A stretch of DNA of 64,000 nucleotides from Sphaerochaetaceae bacterium (lineage in GTDB: Bacteria; Spirochaetota; Spirochaetia; Sphaerochaetales; Sphaerochaetaceae). The notes beneath the pieces are model-generated. The model ran no database searches. It was not told the origin of the DNA and saw only the letters and a list, made by a program, of their open reading frames with translations. Made by a program: the position numbers and the translations under genes. The DNA lies in NCBI GenBank assembly GCA_028532915.1, contig JAQQAI010000094.1:1-64000 (forward strand), written 5' to 3'. Shown piece after piece: positions 48,857-63,509 of this stretch (the first letter of the stretch is position 1; each line of letters opens with the position of its first letter).

Positions 48857-48885
48857 TTGACCCTGCCATCGTTTATGGCTATTAT
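48857..48885 (+). promoter_or_regulatory. Promoter for leaderless def transcript
   Basis: TTGACC (48857-48862), a 17-bp spacer and TATTAT (48880-48885) end six bases before ATG 48892. No Shine-Dalgarno is present, so the transcript likely begins at the initiation codon. Confidence 0.65.
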
Positions 48886-48891
48886 GTGACC

Positions 48892-49389
48892 ATGTTAGAT
48901 ATCTATACGTTAGGAGAAGACGTTCTCCGTGAAAAGACCCAGAGAGTGACCGAATTTGATTCCGGCCTTGCCATTTTGATTGATGCGATGTTCGAAACGA
49001 TGCAGGAAGCTGACGGCATAGGACTTGCTGCCCCCCAGATAGGAGTTTCCAAGCGGTTTTTCGTCGTGGACACTCGCCGCCCGAACGAGCAGATAGCTTT
49101 TATCAATCCCGAGATAATCGAGACCAGTCATGAGGTGGGAACCTATGAAGAAGGGTGTCTGAGTATCCCCGGTGTATACTACGATATCGTGCGTCCTTTG
49201 AGCGTCACCATTCAGGCTCAGGATATCCATGGAAAGGCCTTCACATTGAAAGCTACAGATCTCCTTGCCAGAGTGATCCAGCACGAATATGACCATCTCA
49301 ACGGTACACTGTTCATCGATCGAATGGAGGATGATGCAAGAGAAAAACTCGTAAAAGCCTATAACAGAAAACATAAGAAACGGCGTTAG
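48892..49389 (+). CDS. def: Peptide deformylase
   Basis: This 165-residue Fe2+/Zn2+ enzyme removes N-formyl from nascent proteins. All three motifs are intact: GIGLAAPQIG, EEGCLSIPG (metal Cys) and HEYDHLNG (HExxH-type). ATG 48892 is preferred over GTG 48886 because the promoter ends six bases upstream and the family starts MLDIYTLGEDVLRE. It is followed by fmt, the matching formyltransferase. Confidence 0.97.
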   Translation: MLDIYTLGEDVLREKTQRVTEFDSGLAILIDAMFETMQEADGIGLAAPQIGVSKRFFVVDTRRPNEQIAFINPEIIETSHEVGTYEEGCLSIPGVYYDIVRPLSVTIQAQDIHGKAFTLKATDLLARVIQHEYDHLNGTLFIDRMEDDAREKLVKAYNRKHKKRR

Positions 49390-57766: not shown

Positions 57767-57795
57767 TTGACACTCTCGGCTTCCTGCGATACTGT
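57767..57795 (+). promoter_or_regulatory. his operon promoter
   Basis: Consensus TTGACA (57767-57772), a 17-bp spacer and TACTGT (57790-57795). The ATG of the leader peptide at 57802 begins six bases after the -10, so the his mRNA probably starts at or within a base of that codon. Confidence 0.65.
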
Positions 57796-57801
57796 ATTGC
57801 T

Positions 57802-57846
57802 ATGAATATGTTACATGCACACCATCATCATTTCTCATTTCTTTGA
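57802..57846 (+). CDS. hisL: his operon leader peptide
   Basis: The 14-residue open frame MNMLHAHHHHFSFL contains five His among six consecutive codons (residues 5-10). It lies between the his promoter and the terminator hairpin before hisG. Ribosome stalling at these codons under histidine shortage would free the anti-terminator. There is no ribosome site, consistent with translation from a leaderless 5' end. The gene is too short for routine detection. Confidence 0.8.
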   Translation: MNMLHAHHHHFSFL

Positions 57847-57898
57847 TGCAATGCGTGTGCGATAAATAGGGAGGCTCCGCATCTGCGGGGCTTTTTTT
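57817..57898 (+). promoter_or_regulatory. Histidine attenuator (1:2, 2:3 and 3:4 pairing)
   Basis: Region 1 GCACAC (57817-57822, inside the His codons) pairs with region 2 GTGTGC (57855-57860). Region 2 GCAATGCG (57848-57855) pairs with CGCAT-C-TGC (57878-57886, one bulge) as the anti-terminator. Region 3 GCTCCGC (57874-57880) pairs with GCGGGGC (57885-57891) as the terminator. The anti-terminator and terminator share bases and exclude one another. Energies were not computed. Confidence 0.7.
57874..57898 (+). terminator. Attenuator terminator before hisG
   Basis: A 7-bp GC-rich stem with one G-U pair and an ATCT loop is followed directly by seven T. It is placed 26 bp before hisG, so termination here would silence the whole operon. 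Confidence 0.85.
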
Positions 57899-57923
57899 AT
57901 ATGAAAATTTGTGAGGAGATAGT

Positions 57924-58784
57924 ATGGAGACACGATTGAAGATTGCCCTTCAGAAAAGCGGCAGATTGAGTGAGAAATCATTGGAACTGATCAGGGACTG
58001 CGGTATCCATTTCAGTTCCAATTCGAGGGTTCTCAAAGAAGCGGCAGAGAACTTTCCGATCGAGTTTCTCTATCTGCGCGATGATGATATCCCTTCCTAT
58101 GTCTACGACGGTGTAGCCGATATCGGAATCGTCGGACGCAATGAACACGATGAGCAGAATTTTCCTCTGGAGATCGTCAGAGATCTGGGGTTCGCCAAGT
58201 GCCGTCTTTCGATCGCCGTCCCCAACTCAATGGAATATGAGGGACTCAAGAGTCTTGACGGAAAGAGGATCGCTACAAGCTATCCCACAATACTCCAGAA
58301 GAAACTGAAAGAGGCTAATGTACAGGCCAGAATCTATGAGATCAGCGGTTCTGTGGAGATCACTCCCTCCATTGGGGTAGCAGATGCGATCTGCGATCTG
58401 GTAAGTACCGGAGCTACGCTTGTGAGCAATGGTCTCAAGGAGGTCGAGCCTATCTACACATCGACAGCCGTGATGATCGCTCATCCCGGCCTTGATGATC
58501 TAAAAAGAGGAATCCTTGACAGATTGCTGCTGCGTCTCGATGCGGTGATGAAAGCTGCCGATTACAAGTATATCATGTTCAATCTGCCCAAAGAGCATCT
58601 CGACGAGGTCGCATCGATCATCGGCGGGATGAAAAGTCCGACTGTCACACCTCTGCTCGATGAGAACTGGGTGTCTGTACAGACTGTGGTTCACGAACAG
58701 CGGTTCTGGGATGCTCTGGAGAAACTCAAAGAACTGAAGGCTATGGGTATCCTGGTCACTTCGATCGAGAAGATGGCAGATTAG
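57924..58784 (+). CDS. hisG: ATP phosphoribosyltransferase (long form)
   Basis: This 286-residue first enzyme of histidine synthesis includes the catalytic domains (LKIALQKSGRLSEKS, DDIPSYVYDGVADIGIVGRNE, ISGSVEITPSIGVADAI, DLVSTGATL). It also includes the C-terminal ACT-like regulatory domain of the long, histidine-feedback-inhibited form, with MKSPTVTPLLDENW typical of that domain. GAGGAG precedes the ATG. HisZ is not needed for this form. Confidence 0.97.
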   Translation: METRLKIALQKSGRLSEKSLELIRDCGIHFSSNSRVLKEAAENFPIEFLYLRDDDIPSYVYDGVADIGIVGRNEHDEQNFPLEIVRDLGFAKCRLSIAVPNSMEYEGLKSLDGKRIATSYPTILQKKLKEANVQARIYEISGSVEITPSIGVADAICDLVSTGATLVSNGLKEVEPIYTSTAVMIAHPGLDDLKRGILDRLLLRLDAVMKAADYKYIMFNLPKEHLDEVASIIGGMKSPTVTPLLDENWVSVQTVVHEQRFWDALEKLKELKAMGILVTSIEKMAD

Positions 58785-58800
58785 CACAAGGGGTAACTTG

Positions 58801-60114
58801 ATGGAAATTAACAGATACTACCGGATGAGAGAGGATCAGGTCCCATCGCTTCTCAAGCGGGCGACGGCGAAAAACAACGAAGCTATTTCTAAAAGCGTCT
58901 TTTCTATCATCGATCAGGTGCGAAAGAGGGGAGATGATGCCCTGTTGGAATTGACGAAGACCTTCGATTCGGTTACGCTCTCTTCACTGTTCTATCCCCC
59001 CGAAGCAATAAAGGAAGAGGGAGAACTGCTGGATGACTCTCTCAAGGAAGCTATCGGTATTGCTGCAAAGAATATCACGACTTTCCATCAGAGCCAGAAG
59101 ATCAATCATCAGACGATCGAAGTGTCTCCCGGTGTCTACTGCTGGCAAAAGAGTGTTCCTGTTGAAAAGGTCGGACTCTACATCCCCGGAGGAACAGCGC
59201 CGCTGTTCTCGACACTTCTGATGCTTGCAATCCCTGCAAAGCTGGCAGGATGTAGTGAGATAATCGTAGCAACACCTCCCCAAAAAGACGGCAGGGTCGA
59301 TCCTGCCATCCTGTATGCGGCCTCGCTGGTCGGCATAGGTAAGATCCTGCGGGTCGGCGGTGCTCAGAGTATTGCGGCTATGGCGGCGGGAACCGAAAGT
59401 GTTCCTAAAGTGGATAAGATATTCGGACCCGGAAACGCATTTGTGACCGAGGCAAAGCAGCAGGTGACTTCTCTGGGCTGTGCTATCGATATGCCGGCAG
59501 GTCCTTCGGAGGTAATGGTGGTCATAGACAAAACCAGTGATCCGGCCTTCGCTGCTGCCGATATGCTGAGCCAGAACGAGCACGGAAACGACAGTCAGTC
59601 CATCCTGATCGTCATCGCCGATGATGAACACAAAGGGGAAGAGATTGCCGACAGCGTCGAACAGCAGATGGAAATACAGCTGCAGAGTCTTTCAAGGAAA
59701 GAGTACATACAATCTTCACTGGGCCATTCTCATATCGTAGTGACCTGTTCCAATGAAGAGGCTCTTTCGATCATCAATGCCTATGCACCGGAGCACCTGA
59801 TTATCCATACACAGGATTTCTCGGCTCTGGAAAGCCGGATCGTCAATGCCGGATCGGTCTTTCTCGGCGAATATTCGCCCGAATCGGCAGGCGATTATGC
59901 CTCAGGTACGAATCATACTCTTCCGACTTCCGGTTTTGCCAGATCATACAGCGGGATATCTCTGCTGAGTTTCACGAAGACGATTTCATTTCAGAGACTT
60001 ACTTCAAGCGGATTGAAACAGCTCGGACCCACGATAGTGGAGATGGCACAGTATGAATCGCTCGATGCACATGCAAAAGCTGTGATAATACGTCTTGATA
60101 GGTTAGGAGAATAA
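58801..60114 (+). CDS. hisD: Histidinol dehydrogenase
   Basis: This 437-residue zinc enzyme oxidises histidinol to histidine in two steps. Motifs include VPVEKVGLYIPGG, GGAQSIAAMA, FGPGNAFVTEAKQ, DMPAGPSEVMV, the catalytic/zinc QNEHG region and the late GTNHTLPTSG. ATG 58801 follows AAGGGG. It lies 16 bp after hisG. Confidence 0.98.
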   Translation: MEINRYYRMREDQVPSLLKRATAKNNEAISKSVFSIIDQVRKRGDDALLELTKTFDSVTLSSLFYPPEAIKEEGELLDDSLKEAIGIAAKNITTFHQSQKINHQTIEVSPGVYCWQKSVPVEKVGLYIPGGTAPLFSTLLMLAIPAKLAGCSEIIVATPPQKDGRVDPAILYAASLVGIGKILRVGGAQSIAAMAAGTESVPKVDKIFGPGNAFVTEAKQQVTSLGCAIDMPAGPSEVMVVIDKTSDPAFAAADMLSQNEHGNDSQSILIVIADDEHKGEEIADSVEQQMEIQLQSLSRKEYIQSSLGHSHIVVTCSNEEALSIINAYAPEHLIIHTQDFSALESRIVNAGSVFLGEYSPESAGDYASGTNHTLPTSGFARSYSGISLLSFTKTISFQRLTSSGLKQLGPTIVEMAQYESLDAHAKAVIIRLDRLGE

Positions 60115-60119
60115 GGATT

Positions 60120-61208
60120 ATGGAAAGCTATACAATATCAGATCTGATGCGGCCGAATATCTTGAGTCTCACTCCTTATTCCTCTGCACGTAATGAGTTT
60201 GACGGAGAAGCATCGATCTTTCTCGATGCCAATGAGAATTACCGGGATTTTATCGGATCGTCTGCACGAAACCGCTATCCCGACCCGATGCACAAAGCTC
60301 TCAAGAAGAAAATATCCGAGACTTTCGGATTCAGCGAGAGTTCTGTGGTCGTGGGTAACGGAAGTGATGAGCTCATAGATCTTCTTTTCAGGATCTTCTG
60401 TGTTCCCCGGAAAGACAAGGCTTTGATGCTCAATCCCACCTACGGTGCCTACAAGGTCTTTGCGGATATCAATGATATCGGCATCTCCTACAGTTCTCTG
60501 GATGCCGACTTCTCGATCGACGAAAAGCGGATGCATACTCAATGCGAGCTGATCAGAAAAGGGAGTGTTGAAACCGGTATGCACAAACTGTTTTTCATCT
60601 GTTCTCCGAACAACCCTACCGGAAACAGTTTTTCCATCGATCAGATAGAGAGTATGGCCCGGTGTTTTCCTGGAATAACCGTCGTCGACGAGGCATATAT
60701 CGATTATTCTGATGGAGAATCTGCAGTCTCCCTGATCAAGAAGAATGACAGAGTGGTTGTCCTGCGTACTTTGAGCAAGGCCTGGGGACTCGCGAACGTT
60801 CGGATCGGAATCGCTATTGCAGATGAGAAGATCATAGAGATCATGCACCATGTCAAATATCCCTACAATCTGAGCGGAATCCAGCAGGAACTCGCGATCG
60901 AAGCTCTTTCAAAGAAGGATGAAGTGGACAGCGTGATCGCCTTTATAAAAGAGGAGAGAAAACGGGTTGCTGAACGCCTCGAACATTATTCTTTCGTCCA
61001 GAAGGTGTTTCCCAGCGATGCGAATTTTATCCTCGTACGCTTCGATGACCCTCTTGCCGTCTATTCCGCTCTGTTGGAAAAGGGGATCATCGTCCGCAAG
61101 CGCAATACCGTTGCCGGGTGTTACGGGTGTCTGCGTCTTACAATCGGGTCTGCACAGGAGAATGATATTCTTCTGCAGACTCTCGATTCTTTCGAGGAGC
61201 GAGTATGA
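60120..61208 (+). CDS. hisC: Histidinol-phosphate aminotransferase
   Basis: This 362-residue PLP fold-type I enzyme converts imidazole acetol phosphate to histidinol phosphate. Shown by GNGSDELIDLLFR, SPNNPTGN, VVDEAYIDYSD and the PLP lysine in TLSKAWGLANVRIG. It overlaps hisB by ATGA. Confidence 0.96.
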   Translation: MESYTISDLMRPNILSLTPYSSARNEFDGEASIFLDANENYRDFIGSSARNRYPDPMHKALKKKISETFGFSESSVVVGNGSDELIDLLFRIFCVPRKDKALMLNPTYGAYKVFADINDIGISYSSLDADFSIDEKRMHTQCELIRKGSVETGMHKLFFICSPNNPTGNSFSIDQIESMARCFPGITVVDEAYIDYSDGESAVSLIKKNDRVVVLRTLSKAWGLANVRIGIAIADEKIIEIMHHVKYPYNLSGIQQELAIEALSKKDEVDSVIAFIKEERKRVAERLEHYSFVQKVFPSDANFILVRFDDPLAVYSALLEKGIIVRKRNTVAGCYGCLRLTIGSAQENDILLQTLDSFEERV

Positions 61209-62164
61209 AACGAAAACCGTATCTGGTTGTAGATCTTTTAGATTGTGTCCTCACTTTTTCGTCCGGAAAGTTCAACTGGACTGCCGATATCTTTTTCAGT
61301 ATGAGGAAATTATGCTCTGAAGGACTGTATGCATTGGCTTTATATATTCCCGGCGATCTTGACCCCCAGGATCTGGAATATATAGAGAGAACACTGAATA
61401 ACGAGAGGATATACATAGATAAGATCATTTCAAAGGGCTGTGAACTGAACGATGAATTTATCGACCTCTCTTTGTCATATCTGATCGCAAAAGAGAGACG
61501 GACAGATATTTCGGGTATTGAGCCGGTCCTTTTCACCGACTGGAAGAGTATCGTCTCCCGGTTCTCTCACACGAAAAAGAAGGGAAGAAGTGCGAAGATC
61601 GAGCGCATCACCCGGGAAACGAAGATTTCAGTCTCGCTCGATCTGGACGGGACGGGAATCAGTTCGGTTTCGACAAAGATTCCCTTTTTCGACCATATGC
61701 TCGATCAGATTGCCAAACATGGACACATCGATCTGAGCGTCGATTGCGACGGAGATATAGAGGTCGATGAACATCACAGCGTCGAAGATGTCGCAATTAC
61801 CATCGGACAGGCTCTTATGGAAGCTCTCGGTGATAAAAGGGGAATCTCCCGGTACGGCAGCGCCACCATCCCGATGGATGATGTGTGTTCGACCGTAGCC
61901 GTCGATTTTTCCAACCGTCCCTATTTTGTGTGGGATGTGACTTTCTCAAGAGAGATGGTCGGGACCTTTCCCACCGAGATGGTCTATCATTTCTTCAAAA
62001 GCCTGTGCGATGAATCGAGATGTAATTTACATATGAGCGTTACACAGGGCAATACCCATCATCAGGTGGAATCTCTGTTCAAAGGATATGCAAGAGCGGT
62101 AAGAGAGGCAGTGTTCATCTATCCCGGAAATACCCAGCTGCCGTCGACAAAAGGAGTACTATGA
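61205..62164 (+). CDS. hisB: Imidazoleglycerol-phosphate dehydratase fused to degenerate HAD phosphatase domain (bifunctional-type HisB)
   Basis: This 319-residue protein has an IGP dehydratase domain at about 128-319, fully conserved (FFDHMLDQIAKHG, DEHHSVEDVA, MDDVCSTVAVDFS, THHQVESLFKGYARA). The N-terminal 127 residues align in position with the HAD phosphatase half of enteric HisB, but motif I reads YLVVDLLDCVL instead of the DxDGT form: Asp10 persists and the second Asp is Leu12. The later GD motif is also lost. Histidinol phosphatase activity is therefore doubtful, and another enzyme must do that step. The fold of the remnant is inferred. Confidence 0.88.
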   Translation: MKRKPYLVVDLLDCVLTFSSGKFNWTADIFFSMRKLCSEGLYALALYIPGDLDPQDLEYIERTLNNERIYIDKIISKGCELNDEFIDLSLSYLIAKERRTDISGIEPVLFTDWKSIVSRFSHTKKKGRSAKIERITRETKISVSLDLDGTGISSVSTKIPFFDHMLDQIAKHGHIDLSVDCDGDIEVDEHHSVEDVAITIGQALMEALGDKRGISRYGSATIPMDDVCSTVAVDFSNRPYFVWDVTFSREMVGTFPTEMVYHFFKSLCDESRCNLHMSVTQGNTHHQVESLFKGYARAVREAVFIYPGNTQLPSTKGVL

Positions 62165-62766
62165 ATAAATCTGTGGTTATAGTCAAATACAATGCGGGAA
62201 ACGTACGTTCGGTCATCTGTGCTCTCTCCCGTCTGGGAGTCGATGCTGTCGTCTCCGATGATCCGAAGATACTGAAAAGTGCTTCAAGGGTCATCTTTCC
62301 GGGTGTAGGAGAAGCCTCGACCGCAATGAAATATCTGAGAGAAAGCCATCTCGATGAGATCCTGGTCGATCTGGACAATCCTTTTTTGGGAATATGTCTC
62401 GGACTGCAGCTTATGTGCTCCCGCTCACAAGAGCAGGATACCCCGTGTCTTTCGATATTTCCTACCGAAGTGAACAAGTTCATACCCCTCAACGGTGAGA
62501 AGATTCCTCATATGGGATGGAACACGATACGATGTAATCAGGACTACCTGTTCGAGGGTGTCGCAGATGACAGCTACTGTTATTTCGTTCACTCCTATTA
62601 TGCGGCGAGAGCAAAAGAGACCATCGCCAGCTGCTTCTACTGCGGGATCGAGTTCTCCGCCGCCTTGGGTTCCGGCAACTATCGGGGAGTTCAGTTTCAC
62701 CCCGAAAAGAGCGGCAGTGTCGGTCACAAAATCCTGGAGAACTTCATTAAAGGAGAACGCTTATGA
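62161..62766 (+). CDS. hisH: Imidazole glycerol phosphate synthase glutamine amidotransferase subunit
   Basis: This 201-residue class I amidotransferase shows Cys in GICLGLQLM and the His/Glu pair in FHPEKSG. It delivers ammonia to HisF. ATGA overlaps occur on both sides (hisB and hisA). Confidence 0.97.
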   Translation: MNKSVVIVKYNAGNVRSVICALSRLGVDAVVSDDPKILKSASRVIFPGVGEASTAMKYLRESHLDEILVDLDNPFLGICLGLQLMCSRSQEQDTPCLSIFPTEVNKFIPLNGEKIPHMGWNTIRCNQDYLFEGVADDSYCYFVHSYYAARAKETIASCFYCGIEFSAALGSGNYRGVQFHPEKSGSVGHKILENFIKGERL

Positions 62767-63509
62767 TGGATATCATACCCGCCATCGATATCATCGACGG
62801 AGCCTGTGTCAGGTTGAGCGAAGGAGACTATTCCACAAAGCGCCAATATAACGTAGATCCCGTGGCGGTCGCTGTCTCTTTTGAAGAAGCCGGATGCACC
62901 CGGCTTCATCTGGTGGACCTTGACGGAGCCCGGATGGGAAAGCTTGTTAATTTTAAGATCATAGAGAAGATAGCCGCCCGTACCTCTCTTCACCTCGACG
63001 TCGGAGGAGGAATCAAAAGCAGTGAAGATCTCAAGACACTCTTCTCATGCGGAGCGAAAGAGGCCACCCTCGGTTCTGTCGCAGTGAAGGATAAAGAGCT
63101 TACCCTGGATCTTCTCGATCAGTTCGGCCCTTCACGTCTCATTCTCGGAGCGGACTGCAGAGGGGATGCAATAGCTGTCGGCGGGTGGAAGGAGACGACA
63201 GCTGTGAGTGTCAGCGAATTCGTTACATTCTATTTCGAAAAGGGATTCAGGAAAGTGATCTCTACCGATATCTCCAAAGACGGTATGCTCAAAGGTCCTT
63301 CATTCTCACTGTATGACCAGCTGCTTCAGATCACCCGCCCCTTCGAAGGTTCCACTGTGATAGCAAGCGGGGGAGTCCATTCAATGGAGGATGTCGTATC
63401 TCTGGAAAAGATGGATATCGGCGGTGTGATCATAGGAAAGGCTCTGTATGAACAGTATATCTCATTAGAGGAGATAAAAAGCTATCTCAACGATAGAAGG
63501 GGAGAGTAG
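62763..63509 (+). CDS. hisA: 1-(5-phosphoribosyl)-5-[(5-phosphoribosylamino)methylideneamino]imidazole-4-carboxamide isomerase
   Basis: This 248-residue TIM barrel has its catalytic Asp in IIPAIDIIDG, a second Asp in LGADCRGDAI and phosphate loops DVGGGIKS and ASGGVHS. AAAGGAG lies before ATG 62763. It is followed with no gap by hisF. Confidence 0.96.
   Translation: MMDIIPAIDIIDGACVRLSEGDYSTKRQYNVDPVAVAVSFEEAGCTRLHLVDLDGARMGKLVNFKIIEKIAARTSLHLDVGGGIKSSEDLKTLFSCGAKEATLGSVAVKDKELTLDLLDQFGPSRLILGADCRGDAIAVGGWKETTAVSVSEFVTFYFEKGFRKVISTDISKDGMLKGPSFSLYDQLLQITRPFEGSTVIASGGVHSMEDVVSLEKMDIGGVIIGKALYEQYISLEEIKSYLNDRRGE

What the first reader, a model, noticed from the sequence alone, without database searches (positions are those of the whole stretch)
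57767..57923. Classical histidine attenuator with a His-rich leader peptide
A promoter, a 14-codon frame with five His codons of six (MNMLHAHHHHFSFL), a region 1 stem inside those codons, an anti-terminator and a GC terminator with seven T precede hisG. This matches translation-coupled attenuation known from enteric his operons, not the T-box or TRAP types. It is unusual for the spirochaete-like background suggested here.
Basis: partly seen in the sequence, partly recalled or inferred. Interest (0 to 1): 0.82.

Follow-up and report, generated by a model that had tools for sequence, protein, structure and literature searches.

The report
Leaderless histidine attenuator in Sphaerochaeta-like bacteria
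Upstream of the histidine-making genes sits a short RNA switch that reads a tiny histidine-rich peptide to sense histidine supply; it is conserved across a whole order of spirochaetes, and the peptide's start codon lies exactly where the RNA is predicted to begin, so the ribosome probably loads without any upstream docking site.

Summary
In detail: promoter, 14-codon peptide with five His codons of six, mutually exclusive hairpins, GC terminator with T7, then hisGDC-B-H-A-F. It is conserved. Of 103 Spirochaetota genomes with a long-form hisG, 100 have a 3-6-His leader ORF before hisG, one has a 2-His version and two have lost it; 98 have a detected terminator. Antiterminator and 1:2 pairing covary across 17 genera. 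It is not a homologue of enteric RF00514, and it is normal, not unusual, for this lineage. The ATG lies 6 nt after the -10 hexamer in 81/100 leaders (6-10 nt in 91/100), the -1 base is a pyrimidine in 81/81, and there is no Shine-Dalgarno, whereas hisG has one. One subclade of one genus switched to leaders 19-35 nt from the -10 with a Shine-Dalgarno. Leaderless attenuator peptides are known from Actinobacteria and Sinorhizobium trpL; I found no report for his operons or spirochaetes in the open literature searched. Many Bacteroidota his operons also carry His-rich leaders. No start-site, ribosome or termination data exist here, so the mechanism is inferred.

The parts
57767..57795 (+). sigma-70-type promoter: -35 TTGACA 57767-57772, 17-nt spacer, -10 TACTGT 57790-57795
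   Evidence: sequence; same promoter at the same place relative to the leader ATG in 91 of 100 homologous leaders
57802..57846 (+). hisL-like leader peptide ORF MNMLHAHHHHFSFL, ATG at the predicted transcription start (+1), stop TGA 57844-57846; His codons within 57814-57831
   Evidence: conserved in 100/103 long-hisG genomes; -10-to-ATG spacing 6 nt in 81/100, pyrimidine at -1 in 81/81
57817..57860 (+). 1:2 hairpin: region 1 57817-57830 (inside the His codons) pairs with region 2 57844-57860
   Evidence: MFE fold; own-genus pairing better than swapped, mean -2.4 kcal/mol against -0.5 +/- 0.6 for shuffles
57848..57886 (+). antiterminator 2:3: GCAAUGCG 57848-57855 with CGCAU.UGC 57878-57882/57884-57886
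   Evidence: fold with the His codons covered and the terminator 3' arm not yet made, about -12 kcal/mol; cross-genus swap test
57868..57898 (+). intrinsic terminator: stem 57868-57880/57885-57897, loop 57881-57884, U-tract 57892-57898
   Evidence: -16.4 kcal/mol core hairpin; 98 leaders have one, mean -14.7 kcal/mol, T-runs of 4-9
57913..57918 (+). Shine-Dalgarno GAGGAG of hisG
   Evidence: sequence; strong SD at hisG in 97% of genomes, absent at the leader ORF
57924..58784 (+). hisG, long form with C-terminal regulatory domain (regulated gene)
   Evidence: TIGR00070 188.6 bits, TIGR03455 99.2 bits, PF08029
58798..63998 (+). rest of the operon: hisD 58798-60114, hisC 60120-61208, hisB 61205-62164, hisH 62161-62766, hisA 62763-63509, hisF 63510- (runs off the window)
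   Evidence: NCBIfam for hisD, hisC, hisB, hisH and hisA; hisF from its open frame and sequence

Best explanation
A ribosome-mediated transcription attenuator controls hisGDCBHAF in response to charged His-tRNA. Transcription is predicted to start on the A of the leader ATG, so the nascent RNA is translated as a leaderless mRNA. With histidine plentiful the ribosome runs to the TGA at 57844, covering region 2 (57844-57860); region 3 then pairs with region 4, the terminator forms, and an RNA of about 97 nt is released. With histidine scarce the ribosome stalls at His codons 57814-57831, covering region 1; region 2 is freed and pairs with region 3 (antiterminator), and RNA polymerase reads on into hisG, which has its own strong Shine-Dalgarno. 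Shown here: sequence elements, conservation, cross-genus pairing covariation, promoter-ATG geometry, SD absence at the leader and SD presence at hisG. Inferred: the transcription start, leaderless initiation, ribosome stalling, termination and the response to histidine.
For: 100/103 long-hisG Spirochaetota genomes carry a His-rich leader ORF (3-6 His, median 15 aa) before hisG, 98 with a detected terminator. Region 2 pairs better with its own region 3 than with those of other genera in 17/17 genera, Wilcoxon P = 0.0003; with at most three genomes per genus, -2.17 kcal/mol against 0.06 +/- 0.32 for shuffled region 2. Spacing -10 to ATG is 6 nt in 81, 7 in 8, 8-10 in 2 of 100 leaders, while the 6 nt themselves vary (56 distinct sequences) except for a pyrimidine at -1 in 81/81, the usual YR initiator. 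SD energy at these leaders (-2.1 kcal/mol) equals background (-1.9), hisG -9.0. The own genome shows a general leaderless signature: of 66 promoter-ATG pairs, 35 have spacing 6-7 (P = 3e-9), before genes such as leuS, lgt, rnhB and def. In genus g12, eight leaders at 19-35 nt from the -10 carry an SD, all in one HisG subclade.
Against: No transcript, termination or ribosome data. In the window sequence alone the antiterminator is not better than shuffles (P = 0.18), and the column-wise count on 12 close leaders is uninformative because they are too alike (90.6% paired against 88.8% shuffled). The terminator is more stable than the antiterminator (-17.6 against about -12 kcal/mol), so the switch must rely on order of synthesis. 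One deep relative (G040) has a 32-nt spacing without a clear SD.
Confidence: 0.9

Rival explanations
1. Same attenuator, but the leader ORF is translated from a conventional leadered mRNA made by a start site further upstream (e.g. readthrough from the upstream DUF308 gene or a second promoter), and the -10-to-ATG spacing is incidental.
For: In genus g12, 8 leaders do have an SD and a longer 5' region, so leadered translation of this ORF can occur.
Against: The spacing is 6 nt in 81/100 and 6-10 nt in 91/100 genomes with varied intervening sequence and a pyrimidine at -1 in 81/81; no SD at these leaders; a near-consensus promoter is present.
Confidence: 0.07
2. Uncoupled features: the terminator merely ends a short or upstream transcript and the His-rich ORF is incidental, or the short RNA acts only as a small RNA in trans.
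For: A terminated ~97-nt RNA is predicted, and the S. meliloti trpL RNA acts in trans as well (PMC7298713).
Against: The promoter lies between the upstream gene and the terminator; His-rich coding is conserved in 100 genomes before hisG; the four short- or distant-hisG genomes examined lack it.
Confidence: 0.03
3. A metabolite- or tRNA-binding leader (T-box or riboswitch) or a repressor controls hisG and the small ORF is secondary.
For: None beyond the general use of T-boxes and HisR for his genes in Firmicutes (PMC9413887).
Confidence: 0.01

Closest known systems
Enteric his operon attenuator (hisL; Rfam RF00514 His_leader)
   Same: His-rich leader peptide, mutually exclusive hairpins, intrinsic terminator, upstream of hisG in a hisGDCBHAF-ordered operon with a fused-type HisB.
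   Different: No RF00514 match (E. coli control 131.6 bits); four regions in about 97 nt; five His in six codons rather than seven in a row; predicted leaderless start.
His-leader attenuators of Firmicutes (B. cereus group, Peptostreptococcaceae, Erysipelotrichales; PMC9413887) and hisS/hisZ leaders in bacilli (PMC2965389)
   Same: Short ORF with 3-5 His codons, terminator and antiterminator, outside Proteobacteria.
   Different: Different phylum; leaderless geometry is not mentioned in the passages read.
Leaderless attenuator peptides: Streptomyces trpL, leuL, ilvL (PMC8079986), Corynebacterium ilvB (PMC5784534), Sinorhizobium trpL (PMC7298713)
   Same: Leader peptide ORF begins at the transcription start, followed by terminator/antiterminator structures.
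   Different: Trp, Leu, Ile/Val, not His; Actinobacteria and Alphaproteobacteria; starts mapped experimentally there, only predicted here.
His-rich leaders before hisG in Bacteroidota (found here)
   Same: His-rich short ORF upstream of a long-form hisG in 42 of 59 loci; HisG is the nearest relative outside Spirochaetota seen.
   Different: Bacteroidota-type promoters, varied promoter-to-ATG spacing; a strict terminator was detected in only 18 of 42.

Membership tests
Ribosome-mediated (classical) transcription attenuator for his genes | short ORF rich in the codons of the regulated amino acid upstream of its biosynthetic operon | tested here: met
   five His of 14 codons; conserved in 100/103 genomes
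Ribosome-mediated (classical) transcription attenuator for his genes | intrinsic terminator before the first structural gene | tested here: met
   57868-57898; detected in 98 leaders
Ribosome-mediated (classical) transcription attenuator for his genes | mutually exclusive antiterminator and 1:2 hairpin overlapping the sensing codons | tested here: met
   folds; swap test across 17 genera
Ribosome-mediated (classical) transcription attenuator for his genes | histidine-dependent readthrough | not testable with these tools
   needs RNA or reporter measurements
Rfam RF00514 His_leader (enteric) | covariance-model match above gathering score | tested here: not met
   no match in window or nine related loci; E. 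coli control 131.6 bits
T-box leader | T-box covariance-model match | tested here: not met
   no T-box hit at gathering threshold or among weak hits
Leaderless mRNA | transcription start at, or within a few nt of, the start codon | tested here: inconclusive
   predicted only: -10 to ATG 6 nt, pyrimidine-A at -1/+1 in 81/81; no 5'-end data
Leaderless mRNA | AUG start and no Shine-Dalgarno | tested here: met
   all 100 analysed leaders have an ATG start; SD energy of the short-spaced ones equals background, hisG differs

The most novel reading that the evidence does not exclude
Leaderless initiation is itself part of the sensor: because a 5'-terminal AUG is taken up by intact 70S ribosomes rather than through Shine-Dalgarno docking, the spacing has been held at one nucleotide position over a whole order so that the first ribosome loads at once on the nascent RNA, making the attenuator read ribosome state as well as His-tRNA charge; one genus then moved to SD-led initiation, a natural experiment.
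Probability: 0.15. Interest if true: 0.72.

Novelty: new variant of a known kind. Interest (0 to 1): 0.5.

Why it matters
It extends ribosome-mediated his attenuation, described in the open literature I could search for Proteobacteria and Firmicutes, to an order of Spirochaetota, and points to the same in Bacteroidota, without any Rfam model to find it. It also shows that an attenuator can be kept leaderless over about 90 genomes and then switch to Shine-Dalgarno initiation inside one genus, which makes the question of how the first ribosome is timed to the polymerase in attenuation directly testable by comparing the two kinds of leader.

Tried and rejected
Rfam at gathering and E-value thresholds: only weak Phe_leader/Leu_leader matches (24.6 and 20.1 bits, below cut-off), reflecting the general leader shape. 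Column-wise covariation on 12 close leaders: uninformative, too little divergence; replaced by the cross-genus swap test. Shuffle test of the antiterminator in the single sequence: P = 0.18, not significant. Other leader peptides: none found upstream of the own genome's trpE-like, leuA-like and ilvD genes. CAY runs elsewhere in the genome: the eight inspected lie in frames that do not look like leaders. A first ORF-picking script chose upstream in-frame starts in some leaders and gave false spacings; joint promoter/ATG choice fixed this; because it picks the best-scoring promoter, spacing is not blind, but it was free to choose 4-40 nt. Literature: Lopatovskaya et al. 2010 (survey of attenuators) is cited in PMC4833913 but not held, so earlier mention of these leaders cannot be excluded.

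Full report
What is there. In the window a near-consensus promoter (TTGACA 57767, 17-nt spacer, TACTGT 57790-57795) is followed 6 nt later by ATG 57802, opening MNMLHAHHHHFSFL and TGA 57844-57846; then come region 2, a GC terminator with T7 ending at 57898, the hisG Shine-Dalgarno and hisG ATG 57924. The minimum-energy fold has the 1:2 hairpin and the terminator. The operon behind it is hisG (long form), hisD, hisC, hisB, hisH, hisA, hisF.

Is it more than chance. The genome (G000, 2.64 Mb, 97% complete) belongs to a Sphaerochaetaceae-like family: the nearest named records are Sphaerochaetaceae and Sphaerochaeta MAGs and isolates. A search of 61 relatives and then 139 genomes of the order gave 99 with a long hisG; with four more from other families, I read the upstream DNA of 103. 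100 have an ATG leader ORF of 11-22 codons with 3-6 His including HH, one (G113) has a two-His version, and two (G085, G097) have lost it. In the four genomes with short or distant HisG that were read (L027-L030) no such leader was found. 98 leaders have a detected terminator, mean -14.7 kcal/mol, T-runs 4-9.

Pairing. For each leader I took region 1 (ORF), region 2 (stop to terminator) and region 3 (terminator 5' arm and loop). Region 2 pairs better with its own region 3 than with region 3 from other genera in 17/17 genera (P = 0.0003); with at most three genomes per genus it does so in 15/17, mean -2.17 kcal/mol, against 0.06 +/- 0.32 for shuffled region 2 and -0.13 for reversed. The 1:2 pairing behaves likewise (-2.45 against -0.55 +/- 0.56). 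The paired motifs differ by clade: AAUGCG/CGCAUU near the window, GAAGUGCG/CGCAUUUC in sister families, GACA.GUGGG/CCGC.UGUC in Sphaerochaeta-like g3. In the window leader the antiterminator is 57848-57855 with 57878-57886, about -12 kcal/mol, and forms in the fold once the His codons are covered and before the terminator 3' arm is complete. In one sequence alone it is not significant (P = 0.18), so the support is comparative.

Leaderless start. Choosing promoter and ATG jointly over spacings 4-40 nt, the distance from the -10 hexamer to the leader ATG is 6 nt in 81, 7 in 8, 8 in 1 and 10 in 1 of 100 leaders, and 19-35 in nine. Six nt puts the A of ATG at the usual +1. The six bases vary (56 distinct), but the base before ATG is C or T in 81 of 81, the pyrimidine-purine preference of bacterial start sites (general knowledge). 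SD energy upstream of these leaders is -2.1 kcal/mol, the same as random local 15-mers (-1.9), while hisG averages -9.0. Eight of the nine long-spaced leaders carry AGGAG-type SDs; all eight are in genus g12 and fall in one HisG subclade with 100/99 support that also holds one leaderless member. So the ancestral state is most simply leaderless (also in sister families, spacing 6-8) and one lineage changed initiation mode. The own genome supports leaderless use in general: of 66 strict promoter-ATG pairs with spacing 3-12, 22 have 6 and 13 have 7 (P = 3e-9), many opening what look like clear genes, e.g. leuS, lgt, rnhB, a LacI regulator and def at window 48857 (names from reading the translations). 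In Leptospira, another spirochaete, many mapped starts lie within 10 nt of the start codon (PMC5243855).

Mechanism. High charged His-tRNA: the ribosome reaches the stop, masks region 2, terminator forms. Low: it stalls on His codons, masks region 1, 2:3 forms, readthrough. The elements and their covariation are shown; start site, stalling, termination and histidine response are inferred from established attenuation.

Relation to known systems. It works like enteric his attenuation but is not RF00514 (control hit 131.6 bits in E. coli, none in nine related loci). His attenuators are reported for Gammaproteobacteria and for three Firmicutes lineages (PMC9413887), and hisS/hisZ leaders in bacilli (PMC2965389). 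Leaderless attenuator peptides with mapped starts are reported in Streptomyces and Corynebacterium (PMC8079986, PMC5784534) and S. meliloti trpL (PMC7298713). A transcriptome study of Flavobacterium psychrophilum reports clues of leader-peptide attenuation at amino-acid operons (PMC9723704). I found no paper on his attenuation in spirochaetes, but one relevant survey was not readable.

Origin. The closest HisG relatives outside Spirochaetota in the genome scan are Bacteroidota, and 42 of 59 of those loci also have a His-rich ORF upstream. The his operon and its leader may share an origin between the two groups; direction and homology of the leaders were not tested. HisB is of the fused type but its N-terminal phosphatase half is not recognisable.

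Verdict. Real, conserved, correctly interpreted; a predicted leaderless variant of a well-known mechanism in a phylum where I found no earlier report of it.

Noticed in passing
whole genome G000; e.g. window 48857-48894: Leaderless transcripts seem common: strict promoters have a sharp peak of ATG at 6-7 nt after the -10, before leuS, lgt, rnhB, tRNA nucleotidyltransferase, LacI-type regulators and a peptide deformylase gene in the window.
   Followed up: partly
window 61205-62164: HisB is a fused-type protein whose N-terminal part has no recognisable phosphatase domain while the dehydratase half is intact; histidinol-phosphatase must then come from elsewhere or the domain has diverged beyond recognition.
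   Followed up: partly
L050-L110: Many Bacteroidota long-hisG operons carry His-rich leader ORFs; Cytophagales ones often end in HHFHHSS and sit 8-10 nt after a TAnnTTTG box.
   Followed up: partly
L242 (G000 contig C37, about 35.0-38.7 kb): Upstream of a trpE/pabB-like gene there are two copies of GTTTCTATxxACAGAAAC around the promoter, like a repressor operator.
   Followed up: no
L134, L148, L151, L153, L172, L183, L020, L022 (genus g12): His leaders with 19-35 nt between -10 and ATG and a Shine-Dalgarno: a switch from leaderless to SD-led initiation within one genus.
   Followed up: yes
L177, L178 (G085, G097): Two genomes have hisG without any leader or terminator: apparent loss of the attenuator; both carry the same TGCTAGAGATTAGAATCC stretch before hisG.
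   Followed up: no
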